From NCBI GenBank assembly GCA_017412705.1, contig JAFPWS010000079.1, positions 40,746 to 104,745 on the forward strand: DNA of 64,000 nucleotides. Direction: 5' to 3'. The notes under the pieces are model-generated. The model was given only the letters and a program-made list of their open reading frames with translations. It was not told where the DNA came from and made no database searches. The position numbers were made by a program, and so were the translations under genes. This DNA is from Prevotella sp. Lineage in GTDB: Bacteria; Bacteroidota; Bacteroidia; Bacteroidales; Bacteroidaceae. This document shows, piece by piece, positions 4,033 through 62,476 of this stretch (positions are counted from its first letter, which is position 1; every line of letters begins with the position of its first letter).

Positions 4033-5379
4033 TTACATTCCCGTGTAGTTCATCGGCGTAATGGCCATCAGCTCCTCCTTCACCTCAGCGCTGACCTCCA
4101 GCTGCTGAATGAACTCGTGGATGGTCTGCTCCGTCATCTTCTGGTTGGTACGCGTCAGCGCCTTCAGCGCCTCGTAGGGATGCGGATAAGCCTCACGACG
4201 CAGGATGGTCTGGATGGCCTCGGCCACTACGGCCCAGGTGTTGTCCAGGTCTTGCTGCAACTTCTCTTCGTTCAGGATGAGCTTGCGCAGACCCTTCAGC
4301 GTGCTCTGTATGGCAATGGCGGCATGACCCATGGGCACACCCACGTTGCGCAGCACCGTCGAGTCGGTCAGGTCACGCTGCAAACGGCTTACAGGCAGTT
4401 TCTGTGCCAAGAACTGCAGCACGGCATTGGCAATGCCCAGGTTGCCCTCCGAATTCTCGAAGTCAATGGGATTCACCTTGTGGGGCATGGCACTCGAACC
4501 TACCTCGCCAGCCTTGATCTTCTGCTTGAAGTACTCCATCGAGATGTACATCCAGAAGTCGCGGTCCAGGTCAATGATGATGGTGTTGATGCGGCGCATG
4601 GCGTCGAAGATGGCTCCTAACCAGTCGTAGTTCGAAATCTGCGTCGTCCACTGCTCACGCTCCAGACCCAGTTTCTCTGCAACGAAGCTGTTGCCGAACT
4701 CGCGCCAGTCGTACTGCGGATAGGCCACGTGGTGGGCGTTGTAGTTGCCCGTGGCACCGCCGAACTTCGCTGTGACGGGCGTGTCCTTCAGTGCGCGCAA
4801 CTGTTCCTCCAGACGGTACACATACACCATCACCTCCTTGCCCAGACGGGTGGGCGAGGCGGGCTGTCCGTGTGTCTTGGCCAGCATCGGCACGCTCTTC
4901 CACTGCTCGGCATAGTCGTTCAGCTGTTCTATCAGCTCCTCCACCATCGGATAGTACACCTCGTTCAGCGCCTCCTTGATGGAAAGAGGTACACTGGTGT
5001 TGTTGATGTCCTGCGACGTCAGACCAAAGTGAATGAACTCCTTGTACTTCTCCAGGTTGCCAATCTTGTCCAGCTCCTCCTTGATGAAATACTCCACGGC
5101 CTTCACGTCGTGGTTCGTCGTCTGCTCAATTTCTTTTACGCGAGCCGCATTCTGCTCCGTGAAGTTACGGTAGATGTCGCGCAACGACTCGAAAAGGCTA
5201 TGGTCGAAGTCCTCCAGTTGTGGCAGGGGCAACTCACAGAGCGTGATGAAGTATTCTATCTCCACACGCACCCGATAGCGTATCAACGCATATTCCGAAA
5301 AGTATTCTGCCAACGGTTGTGTTTTACTTCTGTAACGGCCATCAATAGGCGAGATGGCTGTCAGTACATCTAATTCCAT
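4033..5379 (-). CDS. purB: Adenylosuccinate lyase
   Basis: The enzyme splits SAICAR and adenylosuccinate to release fumarate in purine synthesis, in the cytoplasm. Its 448 residues carry the fumarase/aspartase superfamily signature GSSAMPHKVNPIDFENSEGN, the TSQDINNTS substrate loop and the KTHGQPASPTRLGKE segment that holds a catalytic His. The start MELDVLTAISPIDGRY is the usual one for this family. It is first in a minus-strand run with the pseudouridine synthase and asnS. A -7-like TAATTTTG lies 60 bases upstream. Confidence 0.97.
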   Translation of the reverse strand: MELDVLTAISPIDGRYRSKTQPLAEYFSEYALIRYRVRVEIEYFITLCELPLPQLEDFDHSLFESLRDIYRNFTEQNAARVKEIEQTTNHDVKAVEYFIKEELDKIGNLEKYKEFIHFGLTSQDINNTSVPLSIKEALNEVYYPMVEELIEQLNDYAEQWKSVPMLAKTHGQPASPTRLGKEVMVYVYRLEEQLRALKDTPVTAKFGGATGNYNAHHVAYPQYDWREFGNSFVAEKLGLEREQWTTQISNYDWLGAIFDAMRRINTIIIDLDRDFWMYISMEYFKQKIKAGEVGSSAMPHKVNPIDFENSEGNLGIANAVLQFLAQKLPVSRLQRDLTDSTVLRNVGVPMGHAAIAIQSTLKGLRKLILNEEKLQQDLDNTWAVVAEAIQTILRREAYPHPYEALKALTRTNQKMTEQTIHEFIQQLEVSAEVKEELMAITPMNYTGM

Positions 5380-5534: not shown

Positions 5535-5617
5535 GTTTCTCGGTAGGAAACCAACAGTTTCTCGGTAGGAAACTACCAGTTTCTCGGTAGGAAACTATGA
5601 GTTTGTCGGTAGGAAAC
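5535..5617. repeat. Array A: four 17-bp palindromes at 22-bp period
   Basis: Four copies of GTTTCTCGGTAGGAAAC (the last has GTTTG) begin at 5535, 5557, 5579 and 5601, an exact 22-bp period with 5-bp spacers. Each copy has inverted arms GTTTC/GAAAC around TCGGTAG. The array is 77 bp downstream of tRNA-Val(UAC) and 89 bp upstream of the purB -7 box. Related arrays are at 20850 and 62394. It fills most of the 314-base gap between purB and the tRNA; the rest of the gap holds only a promoter and a terminator. Confidence 0.9.
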
Positions 5618-5693: not shown

Positions 5694-5771
5694 TGGTGGG
5701 CGTTGACGGATTCGAACCGCCGACCCTCTGCTTGTAAGGCAGATGCTCTAAACCAGCTGAGCTAAACGCCC
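5694..5771 (-). tRNA. tRNA-Val (anticodon UAC)
   Basis: The minus strand folds as a tRNA: acceptor GGGCGTT/AACGCCC, D-arm TAGCTCAGCTGGTTTAGAGC, anticodon stem TCTGC/GCAGA with loop CTTACAA, giving anticodon TAC, and T-arm GGTTCGAATCC. Discriminator A is followed by an encoded CCA (5694-5696). A TACCTTTG -7 box lies upstream at 5791-5798. Confidence 0.97.
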
Positions 5772-19257: not shown

Positions 19258-20628
19258 TTATTTCTCATTCAGCATCTTCTCGAAGGCGTCCAGCGTGATG
19301 TCCTTCTCGTTCAGCTTCACTACCTGCTTCAAGGCGGCAGTCAGCTTCACGTCGACGGCACGGTCTACCAGACCGTCTACGTTCTCGCGCTTCTTCAGCA
19401 TCTCCTGAGCGTAGTTGTCCAGATACTCGTCGGGGATGTTCGACATGCCATACTGTGCAAACTGTGCACGGGCTGCCTCCTTGGCAACAGCCTTCAGGTC
19501 GTCGTCCTCTACCTTGATGTTCTGGGCGGCAACCAGCTGCTCCTTGATGAGGTGCCAGCCAAGTTCCTTGATGCTGGCGTCGAAGTTCTTGTCTACGAAA
19601 TCGTCAACATCCTTGCGGTCCTTGTTGTTCTGCTTCATCACACGCTTCAGCAGAGCCTCGGGGAACTCCAGCTTGCCAACCTTGTTCTCCATGTGGGCGC
19701 GTACGTCCAACAGGAACTTGTAGTCTGAGTCAGCCTTGAACTGCTGGCTGATCATGTCGCTGATTCTCTGACGGAACTCCTTCTCGTCCTTCACGGTACC
19801 CTCGCCAAAGGTCTGGTCGAACAGCTGCTGGTTTACCTCAGCCTTGACAAAGCGTGAAATCTCAGTAATCTGGTAGGTGAAGTCGCCCGTGTGCTCGGCA
19901 ACCTGGTCCTTCTCTATCTTCAGCAGCGAGCTTACCTCAACGTCGCTCTCGGGATAAGCCTTGCGGGGATTCCAGGTGATGACGTCGCCCAGCTTGCAGC
20001 CGTCGAACAGCTTCTTCTGGTCGTCAACCTTCATATACTGGGGCATCAGCACAGCGTCAGCCACCTCAATGCCGCCTTCCTTGGCGTTGCCTTTCTCGTC
20101 CAGCTCACGCAGGTCTCCCTTAAGCATGTCGCGCTGCTCTGCGTCGTACTTCTCTACCTTCTCATACTGTCCGGCACGGCTCTGGTACATGTCTACCTGC
20201 TGGTCAATCAGCTTGTCGTCGACAGTGATGTTATAGTAGTCAATCTTGTCGCGACCTGTCAGTTCAGCCTTGAACTCAGGAGCTACGGCAATGTCGAACA
20301 TGAAGGTCAGGGGCTTGTCGCCCTCGAAGTCGATAGGCTCCTGCTGCTCGCTGGGCAGGGGCTCGCCCAGCATCTGTATCTTGTTTTCGCGAACATACTC
20401 ATACAGCTTCTCGCCCAGCATCTTGTTCACTGTGTCCACCTTTACAGCAGTGCCATACTGGCGCTTGATGAGACTCATAGGAGTCTGACCAGGACGGAAA
20501 CCGGGAACATTGGCGCGCTTACGATAGTCTTTCAGGGTCTTGTCAACCTCGCCCTGATAGTCTGCATTCTCCAGCGTGATAGTCATCAGACCATTCACCT
20601 TGTCAGGAGCTTCAAATGTGATATTCAT
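19258..20628 (-). CDS. tig: Trigger factor
   Basis: Ribosome-bound chaperone that first meets nascent chains. The ribosome-binding segment (RKRANVPGFRPGQTPMSLIKRQYG, with the GFRxGxxP signature) is near residue 40, and a middle FKBP-like domain that looks reduced and a helical C-terminal chaperone domain follow, 456 residues in all. It precedes clpP and clpX, the classic order. A TAATTTTG box lies at 20683-20676. Confidence 0.95.
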   Translation of the reverse strand: MNITFEAPDKVNGLMTITLENADYQGEVDKTLKDYRKRANVPGFRPGQTPMSLIKRQYGTAVKVDTVNKMLGEKLYEYVRENKIQMLGEPLPSEQQEPIDFEGDKPLTFMFDIAVAPEFKAELTGRDKIDYYNITVDDKLIDQQVDMYQSRAGQYEKVEKYDAEQRDMLKGDLRELDEKGNAKEGGIEVADAVLMPQYMKVDDQKKLFDGCKLGDVITWNPRKAYPESDVEVSSLLKIEKDQVAEHTGDFTYQITEISRFVKAEVNQQLFDQTFGEGTVKDEKEFRQRISDMISQQFKADSDYKFLLDVRAHMENKVGKLEFPEALLKRVMKQNNKDRKDVDDFVDKNFDASIKELGWHLIKEQLVAAQNIKVEDDDLKAVAKEAARAQFAQYGMSNIPDEYLDNYAQEMLKKRENVDGLVDRAVDVKLTAALKQVVKLNEKDITLDAFEKMLNEK

Positions 20629-20849: not shown

Positions 20850-20932
20850 GTTACATGCCGAGTAACCATGAGTTTGTCGGTAGGAAACTGCCAGTTTCTC
20901 GGCATGTAACTATCAGTTTGTCGGTAGGAAAC
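20850..20932. repeat. Array B: four 17-bp palindromes at 22-bp period
   Basis: Units begin at 20850, 20872, 20894 and 20916, exactly 22 bp apart. The first is GTTACATGCCGAGTAAC, the reverse complement of a unit in array C. The second and fourth are GTTTGTCGGTAGGAAAC, and the third is GTTTCTCGGCATGTAAC. The array is 75 bp downstream of tRNA-Val(GAC) and 167 bp upstream of the tig -7 box. Confidence 0.88.
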
Positions 20933-21006: not shown

Positions 21007-21080
21007 TGTCGACACTTGGATTCGAACCAAGGACCCCCACCATGTCAAGGTGATACTCTAACCAGCTGAGCTATGCCGAC
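21007..21080 (-). tRNA. tRNA-Val (anticodon GAC)
   Basis: Minus strand: acceptor GTCGGCA/TGTCGAC with one G-T pair, D-arm TAGCTCAGCTGGTTAGAGTA, anticodon stem TCACC/GGTGG with loop TTGACAT giving GAC, and T-arm GGTTCGAATCC. CCA is not encoded. It follows tRNA-Leu by 14 bases. Confidence 0.95.
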
Positions 21081-44196: not shown

Positions 44197-44276
44197 GCCC
44201 CGTCCTCTGTCAAATCGCGCCCCGTCCTCTGCCAAATCGTGCCCGGCTTGCTGCCAGATCGCGCCCGGTCCGCCAG
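44197..44276. repeat. 22-bp tandem repeat, GC-rich
   Basis: Three full copies and a partial fourth begin at 44197, 44219, 44241 and 44263 (exact 22-bp period). The consensus runs from GCCCCGTCCTCTG to CCAAATCGC. It is not palindromic. Confidence 0.8.
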
Positions 44277-54230: not shown

Positions 54231-54295
54231 ATGTAACATTATGCGATGTTACATGAAATAAAGTTTGGAGGGAAGGGCAAAAATGCCTACCTTTG
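54231..54295 (+). promoter_or_regulatory. HTCS promoter with a TGTTACA inverted repeat
   Basis: ATGTAACAT (54231-54239) and ATGTTACAT (54246-54254) are perfect inverted 9-bp arms, 6 bases apart. The -7 box TACCTTTG is at 54288-54295 and TTTG occurs 20 bases before it. The same TGTTACA word as at the other promoters appears here, but inverted, so self-control is possible. Confidence 0.5.
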
Positions 54296-54334
54296 CATCA
54301 GTCTAACAAACTTACTAACCGATCTTGCATTATC

Positions 54335-57300
54335 ATGACATGTAAAGGACTAACACTTTTTCTGACACTATTCGTATGGATTCTGGGCGCGAAAGCCCAG
54401 ATGGGTCAGTTGTTTGATGCCGACAAGCAGATGTCGAGTAGTTTCACCACACAGATTTACATGGACCGTGACGGGTTCATCTGGGTTGCCACGCGTAACG
54501 GACTGAACCGCTACGACGGCTATCAGTTCCGCATCTTGAAGAAGGAGTCGAGTCAGGACATGGGAATGGCCAGCAACTATGTGAACTGCTTGACGCAAGA
54601 TAGCAACGGTTTGTTTTATATTGGTATGTATGGCGCCCTGCAGACCTACGACGGAGAGCGTTTCCATGACATCAAGACCTACGACCTGGATGGGCACGAC
54701 ATGCCCTCGTTCATCACCTGTCTGCTGGAGCGCCGGAACGGCGACATGCTGGTGGGCACTTCGGGGCGCGGACTGATGCGCATGACCGGCAAGCAGGAAG
54801 CCCGACAGATGGGCGGGGTGCTGAAAGAGCTGGTGACCGTTCACCGCATGATGGAAGACGACAGGGGCAACCTCTGGATAACCACCGAGAACATGGGACT
54901 GCTGCGCTACGACGGTAAGACGCTGCACCGCTATTTCCAGCGCGACGATGAGCGGAGCACCGTGCTGGACGTGTGTCAGGACCGCAAGGGACACGTCTAT
55001 GTAAGTACCGCCAACAGCGGACTGTTCCGCATGGACGGCGACAGCCCCGTACACATAGAGAGCACCGGACAGAAACACATCTCCGTGCTCTACGTCAACC
55101 AACAGGGCGACATCATGCTGGGTTACGACGGCGAAGGTGTGGCCATCTATAACCCCACGACGGGTACGCTGAAGGACAATCCCTACTACAGTCGCGATGT
55201 GGACCTGAGCACGGCCAAGGTGTACTCCATCTGCGAGGACCGCAATGGCAACACGTGGCTCGGACTGCTGCAGAAGGGCATCTACATGCACCCAGCCAAG
55301 ACCACGGGTTTCCACTATATGGGCTACAAGCTGGGCGCCCGCAACCGCATAGGCTCGGCCTGCGTCACCAGTGTGCTGGTGGGTCGTAACGGCTACAATT
55401 GGATAGGTACTGACAAGGATGGACTCTACTGCCTTGACCAGAGCTTTAGGGTGGCAAAGCACTTCAAGGAGCACTTCCCCGCCACCATTCTCGGCATGGC
55501 TGAAGACGGGCAGGAGCGTGTCTGGATAGGCAGCTATAAGGAAGGCTTCGGATGGATTGACACGCAGACGCTGACCTACCACCCCCAGACGCTGCTGCAG
55601 AGTGGCAGCCTCAGCGTGTTCGACATTGAGGTCGACGCGAAGGGACAGCTGTGGCTGGCAACGATGGGACAGGGCCTGCTGCGCTATGACCCCCAGACGG
55701 GGCAGGTGAAGCAATATGTGATGGCGCAGAACGCCGCCGTGGACAGGAAGGTGAACAGTCTGACCAACAACTATATCTCGCAAATCGCCCTCTCGCCCGA
55801 CGGCAAGCGTATCTATGTAGCCACCACGATGGGCGTGTGTGCCATGGTCATAGAGACGGAGGACTGGCTCGGCACCTTCAACGGACAGAACACCCCGAAC
55901 TACGGCGTCGCCGTGCGCATTGCCCGCGAATATGGCGGCAAGTTGCGCATAGGCACCAACGACGGCCTGTACTGCTACGACCTGAAGAAACATCAGTTGG
56001 ATCACCACAGCGTAAACAGCGGCATGGCCGACAACGGCATCTCGAGCATCGAGGAAGACAAGCTGGGCAATCTCTGGATAGGCACCGACCACGGACTGTG
56101 CCGTGTGGACACCAAGACGCAGGTGGTGAGCAACTACTTCGTCGACAACGGCCTGCAGTCCAACGAGTTCAGCGACGGCGCCTCGTGGGTGGCACCAAAC
56201 GGTAAGCTGGTCTTCGGAGGACTGGGTGGCGTCACATGGTTCGACCCCAAGGACATCAAGGAGCGGGAGTGGAAAGCCGAGGTGAAGCTGACGGGATTCT
56301 CCGTCAACGGTGAGGCCGTCACCACAGCCACCATGTCGGGCTTCTGGAAGATTACCGATGCGCCCGTCATCTCTTCGGAACGCTTTGTGCTCAGCCATAG
56401 CGACAACACCTTTGCCCTGCAGCTGTCGACGCTCACCTTCGACAATCCCGAGCACATCGTCTATAGCTACCGCATCAATAGCGAGGCGTGGGTGCGCATG
56501 CAGCCCGGCGTCAACGAGATAACCTTCAGCCATCTGCCCCCCGGCGACTATAAATTCTGCGTCATTGCCGAGCAGAACGGCATCACCACCCCTGAGCGCT
56601 GCTTCACGGTAGTCATCCATGCCCCCTGGTATCGCACGCCACTGGCCTATCTGTTCTATCTGCTGGCCCTGGTGGCTGTCGCCTGGCGTTACCTGCGCCT
56701 CCGTCGCCGCAAGGAGCAAGACCGTCTGCGCCTGCAGGAACACATCCATGCCGAGGAGATGGCCGACGCCAAACTCAAGTTCTTCATGAACATCTCGCAC
56801 GAGATACGCACCCCTATGACGCTTATCGTCACACCCCTGCTGTCGCTCATCAAACAAGACGAAGACCCCCATCGCCGCAGCGTCTACGAGACCATCCGCC
56901 GCAATGCCGAGCGTATCCTCGGACTCATCAACCAGATGATGGACCTCCGTAAGATTGACAAGGGCCAGATGCAGATGCACATGTACGAGACGGAGCTCAT
57001 CTCGTTCCTGGGCGACATCCACACCCTCTTCGGCCAGCAGGCCAAGGCCAAGAACATCAGCTTCCCCTACGAGCACGACACACAGATGCTGCCTGTCTGG
57101 GTTGACCGCGGCAACTTCGACAAGGTCGTCGTCAACCTGCTCAGCAACGCCTTCAAGTTCACGCCTGCGGGTGGCGAGATACGCATGGGAGTCACTCACG
57201 ACGCCCGGCAGGTACACATCAGCATCAAGGACACGGGCGAGGGCATTCCCGAAGACAAGCTTGGCCGCATCTTCGAACGCTTCTACCAGTCTCCTTCTCA

Positions 57301-58336
57301 CGTCAACGACCGCAAGACGGGCACAGGTATCGGACTCGACCTGACGCGCTCGCTTGTCGAGCTGCACCATGGCACCATTGAGGCCCGTAACAACAGCGAC
57401 GGCAAGGGTTGCGAGTTCATAGTCACCATTCCCCTGGGCAACGAGCACTTGAAACCCGAGGAGATGATAGTCGACAAGGAGGACGTCTCGCACACCAACC
57501 GCCTCATTGACGAGGAACTCATGGCAGAGACACCTGCCGACGCCCCCACCGAACTGCCTAAGGTGGGTTGCCGCCAGCGCATAGTCGTCGTCGAGGACGA
57601 TGCCGAGATTCGCGACTATCTGGCCTCCGAGCTGTCGTCCCACTATGAGGTCAGCACTGCCGAGAACGGACGTGCCGGACTGGGCGAGGTGCTCAGGAAG
57701 ACCCCCGACCTGGTCATCAGCGACATCATGATGCCCGAGATGGACGGCAACGAACTCTGCTCCAAGATAAAGGGCAACCCCGCCACCAGCCATGTTCCCG
57801 TCATCCTGCTCACGGCCAAGAGTCGCGACGAGGACCAGCTGGAAGGTCTCGAGATGGGAGCCGATGCCTACGTCATGAAGCCTTTCAACATGGACATCCT
57901 GCGCCGCACCATCGTCAACCTCATCCATACGCACCAGATGCTGCGCCTGAAGTATGGACGCAACGACCAGTTGGAGGAACAGGTCGACGACGTGAAGATG
58001 AAGTCGCCCGACGAGCAGTTGCTGGATCGTGTCATGAAGGTCATCAACAAGAACATCAACAACTCCGACCTCAGCGTCGACGCCATTGCCGAGGAGGTGG
58101 GCATCAGCCGCGTTCACCTGCACCGCAAGATGAAGGAGCTGACGGGCCAGACGCCTCACGACTTCATCCGCAACATCCGTCTGAAGCAGGCTGCACACCT
58201 GTTGGCGTCGCAGAACATGAACATTACCGAGGTCATGTACGCCTGTGGCTTCAACAATGCCGCCTCCTTCTCCACCATCTTCAAGAAGTTCTACGGCATG
58301 TCGCCCCGCGAGTACATGTCCGAGCATCGCAAGTAG
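54335..58336 (+). CDS. Hybrid two-component system regulator (HTCS), XynR-like
   Basis: The 1333 residues run: signal peptide (TLFLTLFVWILGAKA), a periplasmic two-part beta-propeller (Reg_prop repeats such as DGFIWVATRNGLNRYDG, NLWIGTDHGLCRVD), a Y_Y_Y domain, a membrane segment near 770-790 (LAYLFYLLALVAVAWRYL), HisKA with His near 822 (NISHEIRTPMTLI), ATPase (NLLSNAFKFTP near 933), receiver domain with Asp near 1130 (DLVISDIMMPEMDG), and a C-terminal AraC helix-turn-helix (about 1229-1330). It presumably senses xylo-oligosaccharides and activates the locus. Its closest known relative is XynR of P. bryantii, by recall. Its start follows the -7 box by 40 bases. Confidence 0.94.
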   Translation: MTCKGLTLFLTLFVWILGAKAQMGQLFDADKQMSSSFTTQIYMDRDGFIWVATRNGLNRYDGYQFRILKKESSQDMGMASNYVNCLTQDSNGLFYIGMYGALQTYDGERFHDIKTYDLDGHDMPSFITCLLERRNGDMLVGTSGRGLMRMTGKQEARQMGGVLKELVTVHRMMEDDRGNLWITTENMGLLRYDGKTLHRYFQRDDERSTVLDVCQDRKGHVYVSTANSGLFRMDGDSPVHIESTGQKHISVLYVNQQGDIMLGYDGEGVAIYNPTTGTLKDNPYYSRDVDLSTAKVYSICEDRNGNTWLGLLQKGIYMHPAKTTGFHYMGYKLGARNRIGSACVTSVLVGRNGYNWIGTDKDGLYCLDQSFRVAKHFKEHFPATILGMAEDGQERVWIGSYKEGFGWIDTQTLTYHPQTLLQSGSLSVFDIEVDAKGQLWLATMGQGLLRYDPQTGQVKQYVMAQNAAVDRKVNSLTNNYISQIALSPDGKRIYVATTMGVCAMVIETEDWLGTFNGQNTPNYGVAVRIAREYGGKLRIGTNDGLYCYDLKKHQLDHHSVNSGMADNGISSIEEDKLGNLWIGTDHGLCRVDTKTQVVSNYFVDNGLQSNEFSDGASWVAPNGKLVFGGLGGVTWFDPKDIKEREWKAEVKLTGFSVNGEAVTTATMSGFWKITDAPVISSERFVLSHSDNTFALQLSTLTFDNPEHIVYSYRINSEAWVRMQPGVNEITFSHLPPGDYKFCVIAEQNGITTPERCFTVVIHAPWYRTPLAYLFYLLALVAVAWRYLRLRRRKEQDRLRLQEHIHAEEMADAKLKFFMNISHEIRTPMTLIVTPLLSLIKQDEDPHRRSVYETIRRNAERILGLINQMMDLRKIDKGQMQMHMYETELISFLGDIHTLFGQQAKAKNISFPYEHDTQMLPVWVDRGNFDKVVVNLLSNAFKFTPAGGEIRMGVTHDARQVHISIKDTGEGIPEDKLGRIFERFYQSPSHVNDRKTGTGIGLDLTRSLVELHHGTIEARNNSDGKGCEFIVTIPLGNEHLKPEEMIVDKEDVSHTNRLIDEELMAETPADAPTELPKVGCRQRIVVVEDDAEIRDYLASELSSHYEVSTAENGRAGLGEVLRKTPDLVISDIMMPEMDGNELCSKIKGNPATSHVPVILLTAKSRDEDQLEGLEMGADAYVMKPFNMDILRRTIVNLIHTHQMLRLKYGRNDQLEEQVDDVKMKSPDEQLLDRVMKVINKNINNSDLSVDAIAEEVGISRVHLHRKMKELTGQTPHDFIRNIRLKQAAHLLASQNMNITEVMYACGFNNAASFSTIFKKFYGMSPREYMSEHRK

Positions 58337-59332: not shown

Positions 59333-62017
59333 TTATTGTTTTATGAGTTTAACATTGGATATGTTCATCTTTGTCGTCTCTTCGTCTGTCACCTGTCCGG
59401 CCTGGCGGTAGACGAAGGTGCTGTTCTTGATGTCTATGTCGTGCACGCAGTCCAGCCCTGTCAGTCCGGCAGCCTTGATGGCCGTCTGGGCGCCCAGGCA
59501 GGTGATGATCTCGATGTGGATGTCCTGGAAGTCGGGCGTCCGCTTACGCTCCTCGGGGGTAAACTGCTCCATGTACTTCTTCTGCTTGTACAGGTCGGTG
59601 GTCTCGTTGGGGGCCTTGCCTGCATAGTCGCACTGGAAGATGATGGCCTCGTGGGCAATGTTCGTCATCATGATGTCCGAGATGTATAGCTGCTCCGTCT
59701 TGCCTCCGCGTCCTATGCCGCTCTTGAAGCGCAGGCCAGTGTCTGTGTCCGAGAAGGTGTTGTTGCGCACCACCATGCGGCGCATGCCGCTGCTGGTGTT
59801 GCTGCCCAGCACGAATCCGCCATGGGCGTGACGCACGAAGTTGTCTTCCACCACGATGTCCTCGTTGCCGCTGATGAGTCCTGTTCTTGGCGGGTCGCTC
59901 TTGAAGCACATGCCGTCGTCGCCCACGTCGATGTTCGAGCGTACCAGCAGCACCTGGTGGCAGTCGGTGACGTCGATGCCGTCGCCGTTCTGGGCGTTCC
60001 AGGGACAACGCACGTTGATGCCGTCAATAATCAGGTTCTTGCAGTAGAAGGGGTGTATGTGGAAGCGGGGCGAGTTCTGGAAGGTGACACCCTCCAACAG
60101 CACGTTCTCGCAGTTCCACAGCCTCACCAGGTCGGCGCGCATGTGCTCCTGCTTCTCTGCTGTCGGCGCTATGTCGCCATACGCCGACTTCAGGTTCCAC
60201 GGATACCACTTCGAGCCCTTCTCGGCCAGCTGGCCGCCACGCTCCAGACGCGCCTTCCACTCGACGTCGCTCAGCTTGTCGCGCTTCACGTAGTACCAGT
60301 CGGCGCCGTTGCCGTCCACGACACCCTTGCCGGTGATGGCCACATTCTTGCAGTCCGTGGCGTTGATGCCCGAGAAGCACTTGCCCTGCGGGTCGTCAGG
60401 ATTGACAAACAGCTGCTTGTCGGGCGACATGTAGATGACGGCGTTGCGCTCTAAGTGCAGCTCTATGTTGCTCTTCAGGTGGATGGGACCCGTCAGCCAG
60501 ATGCCCTGGGGCACCACCAGACGTCCGCCACCCTCAGCCGCCAGCTTGTCAATAGCCTTGCTGAAGGCCTCTGTGTTCAGCGTCACGCCGTCGCCTACGC
60601 CACCCACATCCTTCAGGTTCACCTTGTACTTCGGAATCGACGGACGCTTCACAGGCTCCACCGCTACAGGCAGGTTCTTGTAGTATTTCGTGTATTGCTC
60701 GTCCACCTCCTTCACCTTGGGCATGGCAGCCTCCTTGGCATCGTAGGCGGCCAGCTTCTGCAGGTAGTAGGCGCGCAGGTCGCTCCACTTATAGTAGGGA
60801 TACGTCGTCGTCTCCGCAGGCAGCGTCATCTCGCGCTCGTTCAGCAGCGCCTTCACCAGAATGTCCTGCTGGCCCTTTGCCCCAGCCTTTCTGTAGAACA
60901 CCAGCTGGATGTTGCTTGCCATGGGGAAGATGTCGTAGTTGCGCCATTGCTCGTCCAGCTCCTTCAGGTCAGCCACCTGCACACCGCAGTTGCCCAGCTC
61001 CAGCAGGCACGCCAGCGGCATCACGCACACCTCGTGGCCGAAGCGCAGCGCAGCCTGCGTCTGTGTCACCGTGTCCGCCGTCTCAATGATGTTGCGCAGC
61101 AGGTTACGCTGGGTGAACGGCATGATGGCATCCGTCTGGGGCGCAGCAGCGTAGTCTATGTACCAGCCCAGGTTGCGCATGTGCCACTGCTCGTACAGCT
61201 CGTCCTCTGTAAACAGCCAGTACAGGTCGGCACCGTCGTCGTGGCTCTGCATGTTCGTCGTTATCTCAAACAGGTTCGACATCAGCGGCCATGCGTTGAT
61301 ATGCTCCTTCACCCATTGCTGGTCGTTGAACAACACGCCCATCAGACGGTCCGGCGTAATGTTGTCGCCCATCTTCCTGCGCACGTCGCGGCCCTTGCGG
61401 CCCAGTGACTTCACCAGACCTGAGCGCTCCTGGTTCAGGTAGTACTGCAGCGACTTGCTCACGTCGTTGTGGATGCGTGCCGAGGGGTTCGCCGCAGCCA
61501 GCTCCTCACACTCTGCCGTCATCGACAGTATGCAGCGGTTCACCGTTGTCGAGCGTGCGTCAATCTGCACCCCCTTCGTCTTGAATATCTCGGGGAAGTT
61601 CTGCACCATGCGCTTGGCGATGCCGTGGTGCTGGCGCTCGCCCACCGTCGTCAGGTCGCCCAGACGGCCTATCGTCGTAGGCAGAAATGCCTCCAGTACC
61701 TTCAGCACCTCGGTGCCCGTAGCTGTCAGCTTGCCTGCCTGCCGTGCCTTTTGCAGCGGTTCCGTCACACTTGTGTAGCTGTCATCGCTAATCAGCCAGC
61801 GTGAGCCATGACGCCCGTAGTGCGACATGTAGAAAGGCACATATCCCTTCGGGGCCGGTGTCAGCGCCTTGTCAGACCGATGGCGGTCGTAGTCCAGGTA
61901 GTTCGAACCAGCCAAATACTTGTTGGCCTTGATCTCCTCGCGTGCTGTCTGGGCCGTCACCGTCCCAGCCCATGCTGTCGATAGCAGCACCACACCCAGC
62001 AGAAACACTCTCTTCAT
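59333..62017 (-). CDS. Histidine acid phosphatase - GH28 fusion protein
   Basis: The 894 residues start with a signal peptide (MKRVFLLGVVLLSTAWAGTV). Residues about 30-440 are a histidine-type acid phosphatase (phytase/MINPP-like): SHYGRHGSRW with the RHG motif at 69-71, and RFGHEVCVMPLA with the HE pair near 326. Residues about 455-894 are a GH28 pectinase-type beta-helix: IWLTGPIHLKSNIELHL, NGDGIDVTD near 677, NIDVGDDGMCFKSD near 700, HGGFVLGSNTSSG and LRFKSG. The GH28 aspartates and the RxK-type residues are present, so both domains look active. Such a fusion is unusual. A TACCTTTG box lies at 62061-62054. Upstream open frame to 62128 has no signal peptide. Confidence 0.88.
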   Translation of the reverse strand: MKRVFLLGVVLLSTAWAGTVTAQTAREEIKANKYLAGSNYLDYDRHRSDKALTPAPKGYVPFYMSHYGRHGSRWLISDDSYTSVTEPLQKARQAGKLTATGTEVLKVLEAFLPTTIGRLGDLTTVGERQHHGIAKRMVQNFPEIFKTKGVQIDARSTTVNRCILSMTAECEELAAANPSARIHNDVSKSLQYYLNQERSGLVKSLGRKGRDVRRKMGDNITPDRLMGVLFNDQQWVKEHINAWPLMSNLFEITTNMQSHDDGADLYWLFTEDELYEQWHMRNLGWYIDYAAAPQTDAIMPFTQRNLLRNIIETADTVTQTQAALRFGHEVCVMPLACLLELGNCGVQVADLKELDEQWRNYDIFPMASNIQLVFYRKAGAKGQQDILVKALLNEREMTLPAETTTYPYYKWSDLRAYYLQKLAAYDAKEAAMPKVKEVDEQYTKYYKNLPVAVEPVKRPSIPKYKVNLKDVGGVGDGVTLNTEAFSKAIDKLAAEGGGRLVVPQGIWLTGPIHLKSNIELHLERNAVIYMSPDKQLFVNPDDPQGKCFSGINATDCKNVAITGKGVVDGNGADWYYVKRDKLSDVEWKARLERGGQLAEKGSKWYPWNLKSAYGDIAPTAEKQEHMRADLVRLWNCENVLLEGVTFQNSPRFHIHPFYCKNLIIDGINVRCPWNAQNGDGIDVTDCHQVLLVRSNIDVGDDGMCFKSDPPRTGLISGNEDIVVEDNFVRHAHGGFVLGSNTSSGMRRMVVRNNTFSDTDTGLRFKSGIGRGGKTEQLYISDIMMTNIAHEAIIFQCDYAGKAPNETTDLYKQKKYMEQFTPEERKRTPDFQDIHIEIITCLGAQTAIKAAGLTGLDCVHDIDIKNSTFVYRQAGQVTDEETTKMNISNVKLIKQ

Positions 62018-62053
62018 ACGTTCAAAAGTTGTTAATGTTTGTGATTTCGTTGG

Positions 62054-62061
62054 CAAAGGTA
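62054..62061 (-). promoter_or_regulatory. -7 box for the phosphatase-GH28 gene
   Basis: TACCTTTG on the minus strand, 36 bases before the start at 62017, fits the TAnnTTTG consensus. No TTACA boxes lie at the xylan-promoter spacing, so the gene is outside that regulon. Confidence 0.5.
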
Positions 62062-62221
62062 GTGAAAACCGAGCGAAATGCAAAGAAAAAAAACATTTTT
62101 CTTTTATTTCCAAGGTGCATCTTATCATTAATTAGGAAGTACGAAGTTGGAAGTACGATGTATCGGGCTTTGCCCGAGGGAGAAGTACGAAGGATGAAGT
62201 ACTTTAAACATCGTACATCGT

Positions 62222-62352
62222 ACATCAAACATCATCCTCGCCGAAGGCGACACATCGAACTTCGTAATTCGTACATCGTACATAGTACATCAAACATCAA
62301 ACATCATCCTCGTCGAAGGCGACACATCGAACTTCGTAATTCGTACATCGTA
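62222..62352. repeat. 59-bp direct repeat in stutter-type intergenic DNA
   Basis: Bases 62222-62280 and 62294-62352 are identical except one base (ACATCAAACATCATCCTCG then CCGAAGG or TCGAAGG). Each contains the small hairpin TCGCCGAAGGCGA, or its variant. The flanks repeat short words (acatcgtacatcgtacatc). This is the start of a 1.3-kb stretch without a confident gene. Confidence 0.85.
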
Positions 62353-62393: not shown

Positions 62394-62476
62394 GTTTCTC
62401 GGTAGGAAACTACCAGTTACTCGGCATGTAACTACCAGTTTGTCGGTAGGAAACCCTTGCTTTGTCGGTACCAAAC
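62394..62476. repeat. Array C: four 17-bp palindromes at 22-bp period
   Basis: Units begin at 62394, 62416, 62438 and 62460 (exact 22-bp period). They read GTTTCTCGGTAGGAAAC, GTTACTCGGCATGTAAC, GTTTGTCGGTAGGAAAC, and a degenerate CTTTGTCGGTACCAAAC. The second is the reverse complement of the first unit of array B. Confidence 0.88.

What the first reader, a model, noticed from the sequence alone, without database searches (positions are those of the whole stretch)
5535..5617. Tetrad arrays of 17-bp palindromes at an exact 22-bp period (three copies in the window)
Arrays at 5535, 20850 and 62394 each have exactly four units at exact 22-bp spacing, although units differ in sequence and one is reversed. 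Period and number are conserved more strongly than sequence, which suggests binding of a protein on one DNA face (22 bp is close to two turns). The GTTTC/GAAAC arms recall parS (GTTTC-ACGT-GAAAC), but the centre is 7 bases. Mobile short palindromes or a chromosome-organising site are possible.
Basis: partly seen in the sequence, partly recalled or inferred. Interest (0 to 1): 0.8.

Follow-up and report, generated by a model that had tools for sequence, protein, structure and literature searches.

The report
Phased palindrome arrays in Prevotella relatives
Short mirror-image DNA sequences sit in groups of about four at an exact 22-base step in the gaps between genes of many Prevotella-like bacteria; the step is kept while the letters differ from species to species, which points to rows of docking sites for a still unknown DNA-binding protein.

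Summary
All three window arrays have four 17-bp units at exactly 22 bp. In the own genome the unit family has 153 copies, reversed-pattern control 0; 103 of 103 neighbour spacings are 22 bp, and 23 of 42 fetched arrays have four units.

Arrays with this geometry but unrelated letters occur in 170 of 398 genomes of the genus, against 8 of 296 across the phylum. A scan blind to sequence finds 19 arrays at period 22 in 400 kb of a relative, 0-3 at other periods. Between own genome and a sister species the 17-mers change 5 to 7 times less than spacers or flanks. Yet the purB and tig arrays of the window are absent from that sister. Arrays recur about 280-360 bp upstream of VapE-like genes: 11 of 27 loci, against 5 of 58 control loci.

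Best reading: cooperative, helically phased sites for a dimeric DNA-binding protein whose recognition sequence changes between species. The protein is not identified. Tests for parS, REP, CRISPR and iteron fail.

The parts
5535..5617 (+). Array 1: four 17-bp units (5535-5551, 5557-5573, 5579-5595, 5601-5617), all the same way round, 5-bp spacers; between a tRNA gene (5697-5771, -) and an adenylosuccinate lyase gene, purB (4033-5379, -)
20850..20932 (+). Array 2: units 20850-20866 (reversed), 20872-20888, 20894-20910, 20916-20932; between a tRNA gene (21007-21080, -) and a trigger factor gene, tig (19258-20628, -)
20850..20866 (-). the reversed unit of array 2, GTTACTCGGCATGTAAC on the - strand, kept in the 22-bp register
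62394..62476 (+). Array 3: units 62394-62410, 62416-62432, 62438-62454, 62460-62476 (last one CTTTGTCGGTACCAAAC); upstream of an ORF with a GH28 match (59333-62128, -); the sister species G119 carries the identical array
44197..44271 (.). A second, non-palindromic 22-bp-period array (GCCCCGTCCTCTGCCAAATCGC, 3.4 copies); a similar 22-bp repeat stands at the right end of the ~500-bp dispersed element. Possibly related by its period; kinship not shown

Best explanation
The arrays are rows of about four adjacent, dyad-symmetric binding sites for a dimeric DNA-binding protein. One dimer sits on each 17-bp palindrome; the 22-bp step (two helical turns of 11 bp) keeps neighbouring dimers on the same face, so that they bind cooperatively as a block of about 88 bp in intergenic DNA. 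The recognised letters differ between species while the spacing needed for contact between neighbouring dimers does not, so geometry outlives sequence. Arrays gain and lose whole 22-bp units and whole arrays. SHOWN: geometry, slow change of the units, free spacers of fixed length, intergenic placement, turnover, preference for VapE-like gene leaders. INFERRED: that a protein binds, that it is a dimer, cooperativity, co-evolution. UNKNOWN: the protein, and whether the output is gene regulation, nucleoid structure or silencing.
For: 103 of 103 spacings are 22 bp; the mode of four units (23 of 42) exceeds a geometric (slippage-like) expectation of 4.4. Blind scan of 400 kb of G085: 19 arrays at period 22, 0-3 at each other period from 16 to 30; with a simpler score 19 against 0-6. 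Genus 170 of 398 genomes, phylum 8 of 296, own genome included in both. Arms covary across 410 units (pair 5/13: 255 standard pairs, 141.8 expected; pair 4/14: 340 against 270; pair 0/18: 268 against 120). G000 against sister G119, the 9 of 13 orthologous pairs with equal unit number: substitutions 8/527 in 17-mers, 9/110 in spacers, 117/1064 in 60-bp flanks, no gap inside these 9 arrays. 18 of 18 placed G085 arrays are intergenic although 83% of the stretch is called coding. Units mix orientations inside arrays, which suits a symmetric, double-stranded reader. At VapE-like genes the arrays of different letters stand at one distance, -284 to -357. RNA folds are inconsistent (z from -0.45 to -5.9).
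Against: No binding protein was found. Within some genomes the interiors differ from unit to unit (for example Bacteroides timonensis L044), which a single strict specificity does not explain. Arrays at one locus can be replaced wholesale or absent in a sister species. 19 of 40 own arrays share at least 40 bp of flank with another array, so part of them came by duplication of longer DNA. The constraint estimate is conditioned on G119 arrays being recognisable, 4 of 13 pairs were left out of it, and gene conversion among arrays could mimic constraint.
Confidence: 0.5

Rival explanations
1. Selfish short palindromic repeats (REP- or MITE-like), spread by a transposase acting in trans; the 22-bp step is a product of how units are copied.
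For: Many near-identical copies per genome, letters specific to the species; window arrays at purB and tig absent from the sister whose purB and tig products are 100% and 98% identical; 19 of 40 own arrays share flank with another; 8 copies of a ~500-bp element with inverted ends and 11-bp repeats carry an array; one Y1 transposase in the genome.
Against: No unit (up to 2 mismatches) and no blind array in the 3360 bp round the Y1 gene; 21 of 40 own arrays share no flank of 40 bp with another; 13 of 20 G119 regions are orthologous to own array regions and the 17-mers change slowly; REP partners are 20-100 bp apart (PMC3733652, passages).
Confidence: 0.27
2. Iteron-like sites: origin or control region of VapE-type islands, later dispersed.
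For: With one score and one 600-bp window, 11 of 27 VapE-like loci have an array upstream, against 5 of 58 purB and tig loci, Fisher p 0.0009; own rows excluded 10/26 against 4/56, p 0.001; the 11 lie at -284 to -357. In the own genome 4 of 6 distinct VapE loci carry the own-type array.
Against: Most arrays are not next to VapE (8 of 163). G085 (19 arrays in 400 kb) is not among the genomes with a VapE match, and G082 (252 three-unit matches) is listed there without one. Units are mixed in orientation. Paralogues 32-64% identical to the query share one unit family in the own genome.
Confidence: 0.1
3. RNA-level hairpins (leaders, 3' ends, attenuators).
For: Arms covary; array 2 folds well on both strands, z -5.7 and -5.9, and array 1 moderately, z -2.5 and -3.2.
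Against: Array 3 folds no better than shuffles (z -1.4 and -0.45); mixed orientation; arrays occur in convergent, divergent and tandem gaps with no clear preference; common units have a mismatched stem; a constant 22-nt step is not needed for hairpins; no Rfam match in the window other than tRNAs.
Confidence: 0.08
4. Neutral satellite-like tandem repeats kept alike by slippage and gene conversion; period inherited from a founder.
For: Whole-unit gain or loss (L170 with 4 units, L364 with 5); other 22- and 23-bp tandem repeats exist in G085.
Against: Size peaks at four instead of falling off; slow change in the 17-mer but not in the spacer; arrays of unrelated letters at one locus in different species.
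Confidence: 0.07

Closest known systems
REP / BIME elements with RAYT (GTAG- and CGTC-tagged palindromes; PMC3733652, passages read)
   Same: short dispersed intergenic palindromes, families particular to a species, clustered
   Different: there partners mostly lie 20-100 bp apart and carry an end tag; here a constant 22-bp step, no end tag, and no array in the locus of the one Y1 gene
BrickBuilt MITE of Porphyromonas gingivalis (PMC4596501; abstract, outline and one section read)
   Same: dispersed intergenic elements built of short tandem repeats (23 nt, no spacers); Porphyromonas is of the same order (recalled)
   Different: there direct repeats with 0 to 6% indels and 1 to 22.8 copies, many with leader and tail; here palindromes with spacers, exact 22 bp, mostly 3-5 units, and 21 of 40 own arrays without shared flank
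Plasmid iterons (for example of F, RK2, R6K; recalled, not tested)
   Same: 17-22-bp sites repeated at about two helical turns for a protein on one face
   Different: iterons are direct repeats beside a rep gene; these are palindromes of mixed orientation, dozens per genome
Lambda-type operators (17-bp dyads in tandem; recalled)
   Same: adjacent 17-bp dyads for cooperative dimers
   Different: one regulatory region instead of dozens of loci
parS / ParB
   Same: GTTTC..GAAAC arms
   Different: 7-base centre, exact arrays, dozens of dispersed copies; no parS core found in the window or loci

Membership tests
parS | GTTTC-ACGT-GAAAC type core | tested here: not met
   0 matches to GTTNCNCGNGNAAC in the window, 0 of TGTTTCACGTGAAACA in 430 loci
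parS | few sites near the origin (recalled) | tested here: not met
   42 fetched own arrays on many contigs; G085 arrays spread over at least 2.2 Mb. Origin position itself not tested
REP/BIME | GTAG or CGTC tag at one end of the stem-loop | tested here: not met
   units begin GTT (or CTT) and end AAC; GGTAG is interior
REP/BIME | associated Y1 (RAYT) transposase flanked by the repeats | tested here: not met
   one Y1_Tnp in the genome; 0 units with up to 2 mismatches and blind score 11 (background) in its 3360-bp locus
REP/BIME | variable spacing between partners | tested here: not met
   103 of 103 spacings 22 bp
MITE | terminal inverted repeats and target-site duplication round each copy | tested here: inconclusive
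   21 of 40 own arrays share no flank of 40 bp with another, 19 do; 8 copies of a ~500-bp element with inverted near-end sequence carry an array; target-site duplication not examined
CRISPR | direct repeats with unique spacers of about 20 bp or more | tested here: not met
   5-bp spacers, mixed unit orientation
iterons | direct repeats, one orientation | tested here: not met
   orientations mixed within many arrays, although others, such as array 1, are uniform
iterons | next to a replication-initiator gene | tested here: inconclusive
   VapE-like genes enriched, but 155 of 163 arrays are not next to one; that these VapE proteins initiate replication is not shown
cooperative operator array | a protein that binds the sites | not testable with these tools
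   no binding data; only slow change and geometry

The most novel reading that the evidence does not exclude
Prevotella and its relatives have a genome-wide, sequence-agile DNA-binding system: one protein (or family) reads phased palindrome arrays every few tens of kilobases, its recognition letters turn over between species by concerted change of the protein and all arrays, and the 22-bp lattice is the conserved part. It would be a bacterial counterpart of fast-evolving site-and-reader pairs such as satellite arrays or PRDM9 hotspots, possibly with a nucleoid or silencing role and a special link to VapE-like genes.
Probability: 0.3. Interest if true: 0.92.

Novelty: categorically new. Interest (0 to 1): 0.77.

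Why it matters
A DNA element defined by its lattice and not by its letters escapes ordinary repeat and motif searches, and seems common in a large genus of gut and rumen bacteria. If a protein reads it, it is a candidate global regulator or nucleoid factor of this group, and a system in which site and reader change together often enough to compare sister species. It can be tested directly in cultured carriers such as Prevotella lacticifex, Bacteroides cellulosilyticus and Bacteroides xylanisolvens (loci, titles).

Tried and rejected
Rejected: parS; Rfam family (tRNAs only); CRISPR (5-bp spacers); REP/RAYT; 3'-end or terminator role (no clear preference for convergent gaps: 4 of 18 observed, about 2.3 expected by placeable length); VapE-like protein as the general binder (G085 and G082 have many arrays but no VapE match; VapE paralogues of the own genome share one unit family).

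Led nowhere or weak: plasmid search with array 1 (no match); viral contigs (45 stretches, some truly palindromic; no VapE match by tblastn in the fetched parts); regular spacing (CV 0.60, random 0.94, P 0.014 in 400 kb; an incomplete chromosome-wide list of 56 gives 0.85); the reversed-pattern 'control' is no control, since CAA-N11-TTG arrays are real in other genomes; RNA folding. With the simple three-unit score over the window itself, period 22 gives 2 arrays and other periods 0-1, so array 3 escapes that score and single-window power is low. One search stopped with an error at the nineteenth array; the gap analysis was redone on 18 arrays. In one search three of 13 pair alignments failed and two were cut at the array; the arrays were read again by unit. 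One search lists only the first 100 places; arrays known only from one-mismatch units were not fetched, and one search shows further array-like matches. The first VapE comparison (11/30 against 6/60, p 0.004) used unequal windows and thresholds, and four purB loci were read at a wrong offset; one search repeats it with one rule. There 2 purB and 3 VapE loci with under 250 bp upstream were dropped; at the looser threshold of 13 the counts are 13 of 27 (VapE) and 8 of 58 (controls), of which one purB hit is the stems of a tRNA gene and one tig hit (L302) looks like chance. After this check I raised the mobile-repeat rival from 0.25 to 0.27, because 19 of 40 own arrays share flank, more than I had written.

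Literature: 8 searches showed no description of such arrays in their listings; the library holds open-access papers only. Papers seen: PMC5771137 and PMC3733652 passages only; PMC4596501 abstract, outline and section 5; all others search listings only.

Full report
WHAT IS THERE. The three window arrays are as described: four 17-bp units each, starts at 5535/5557/5579/5601, 20850/20872/20894/20916 and 62394/62416/62438/62460, always 22 bp apart, the first unit of the second array reversed. Shuffles give 0.09 to 0.45 matches where 10 to 13 are seen. Arrays 1 and 2 lie between a tRNA gene and, respectively, an adenylosuccinate lyase gene (purB) and a trigger factor gene (tig); array 3 lies upstream of an ORF with a GH28 match.

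GENOME-WIDE. In the own genome (3.42 Mb, 96 contigs, 86% complete) the unit pattern with up to one mismatch occurs 89 times forward and 64 reverse, and its reversed control 0 times. I fetched the surroundings of the arrays in the listed part of that output (the first 100 places) and had the window. Over 42 arrays (one duplicate contig and a lone match in the window left out) the sizes are 1:2, 2:6, 3:8, 4:23, 5:3, and 103 of 103 neighbouring spacings are 22 bp. A geometric size law with the same mean would give 4.4 arrays of four units. Outer units can belong to another palindrome family in the same register, for example TTCAATCGTAATACGAA with GGCCC-like spacers. So period holds strictly, number loosely. 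Of 40 arrays tested, 19 share at least 40 bp of flank with another array and 21 do not; arrays 1 and 2 share theirs where each has a tRNA gene.

ACROSS SPECIES. The particular letters stay near background in the 59 relatives, a sample that did not hold the sister species G119. The bare geometry GTT-N11-AAC-N5, three times, up to one mismatch, is in 170 of 398 genomes of the genus, up to 252 matches per genome, with interiors that differ from genome to genome. CAA-N11-TTG arrays at the same step are common in other genomes of the genus. Across the phylum only 8 of 296 genomes match, own genome included; two more of the eight are of the same family. To avoid depending on letters I scored palindromes alone: in a contiguous 400 kb of relative G085, 19 arrays stand at period 22 and 0 to 3 at each other period from 16 to 30, or 19 against 0 to 6 with a simpler score. 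Period 33, 1.5 times 22, also stands out, which fits dyads every 11 bp. In the 87 relatives' loci fetched for other reasons the same simple score gives 23 at period 22 and 0 to 8 elsewhere.

SYMMETRY. Over 410 units of the 116 loci, arm positions that the search pattern did not fix covary: pair 4/14 340 of 410 standard (270 expected if independent), 5/13 255 (142), 6/12 182 (104), and the bases just outside the unit 268 (120). The inner spacer positions do not (89 of 293, 84 expected). Units of both orientations occur in one array without loss of register, so what is read is most simply double-stranded and symmetric.

CONSTRAINT. Genome G119 is a sister species (purB product 100%, tig product 98% identical) with the same unit family (33 forward and 17 reverse matches to a looser pattern, reversed control 1 and 0). 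Of 20 G119 regions fetched, 13 are orthologous to own array regions. In the 9 pairs with equal unit number, substitutions are 8 of 527 sites in the 17-mers, 9 of 110 in the spacers and 117 of 1064 in 60-bp flanks; unit against spacer p = 0.0007, unit against flank p = 2e-13, spacer against flank p = 0.42. These 9 arrays have no gap inside. The 4 pairs with unequal unit number were left out; one shows a clean gain or loss of one 22-bp unit (L170, L364). Caution: an array had to be recognisable in G119 to be counted, and gene conversion could homogenise units; but the rule allowed up to 3 of 17 mismatches and the observed 1.5% is far inside it.

TURNOVER. The purB and tig arrays of the window are missing in G119, where other sequence stands in the place. 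Before tig four relatives (G078, G089, G093, G102) have arrays, each of other letters; before purB none of the relatives that could be read has one. In G106 the purB stretch holds about ten copies of an 11-bp repeat. At the L362 locus G119 has a six-unit array where the own genome has a ~500-bp dispersed element. That element has at least 8 copies in the own genome, seven of which were aligned through the array; its centre is a palindrome array, flanked by 11-bp repeats in opposite directions and by inverted GAAATCGTCCTTCATCCTTCACT.

GENE CONTEXT. All 18 G085 arrays that could be placed are intergenic in a stretch called 83% coding. Contexts are 4 convergent, 4 divergent, 10 tandem, not clearly different from placeable length. 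Among ORFs beside 163 arrays the largest recurrent cluster is a VapE-like protein with a BT4734-like N-terminal domain (8 arrays), and the next is DUF6078 (6). As this came from the data, I tested it anew on loci from a 120-genome search. With one score (threshold 14) and one 600-bp window, 11 of 27 usable VapE-like loci have an array upstream, against 1 of 28 for purB and 4 of 30 for tig; Fisher p = 0.0009, and without own rows 10/26 against 4/56, p = 0.001. At other periods from 18 to 26 the VapE loci give 0 or 1 and the control loci 0 to 2. The tig array of the window scores 13 and is not among the 4. The first dyads of the 11 VapE arrays lie between -357 and -284 from the gene start although their letters differ, a conserved place with unconserved letters. 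In the own genome 4 of 6 distinct VapE loci have the own-type array upstream.

MECHANISM. The most economical account is cooperative binding of a dimeric protein to about four dyads on one face. Fixed spacer length with free spacer letters, slow change of the 17-mer, symmetry, mixed orientation and a preferred size of four all follow from it. That the protein exists, that it is dimeric and that its specificity evolves with the sites are inferences. Transposition by an enzyme in trans may be how arrays travel; that can be true together with a host function. RNA hairpins are unlikely as a common role because arrays fold inconsistently (z from -0.45 to -5.9). Iteron, lambda-operator and Lrp-type wrapping are analogies recalled from general knowledge.

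NOVELTY. No listed family fits: parS, REP, CRISPR and iterons each fail a tested defining feature, and the MITE test is inconclusive. Eight literature searches in an open-access library listed no description; a subscription paper could have been missed. I therefore rate the element as categorically new, with the mechanism open.

Noticed in passing
window 44197-44271: Non-palindromic 22-bp direct repeats (GCCCCGTCCTCTGCCAAATCGC, 3.4 copies) outside the longest ORFs; a similar 22-bp repeat ends the ~500-bp dispersed element.
   Followed up: partly
L384-L391 (own genome contigs C53, C44, C34, C88, C66, C52, C13, C55): A ~500-bp dispersed element in at least 8 copies with inverted near-end sequence, 11-bp repeats of AGTGAAGGAWA type and a central palindrome array; gene content and target-site duplications not examined.
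   Followed up: partly
L272:1198-1303 (G106, upstream of purB): 11-bp direct repeats (CTCTATCCGAA, 9.6 copies) near the place where the own genome has a 22-bp palindrome array.
   Followed up: no
L076, L101, L111, L127; L048, L081, L116: Treponema or Spirochaetales contigs, and some contigs titled as archaeal, also carry palindromes at a 22-bp step.
   Followed up: no
own contigs C61/C95, C65/C47, C5/C63: Near-identical stretches on pairs of contigs suggest redundancy in the assembly, which would inflate copy counts slightly.
   Followed up: partly
window 62208-62352: A 72-bp tandem repeat, 2 copies, just left of array 3, with 7-bp sub-repeats.
   Followed up: no
own contigs C4:539-803, C49, C88, C64 and others: A separate dispersed repeat of about 47 bp, in C4 at steps of about 73 bp.
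   Followed up: no
window 54293-58336 and 54368-58327: Two very long ORFs (1347 and 1319 aa) on opposite strands over the same DNA; not examined.
   Followed up: no
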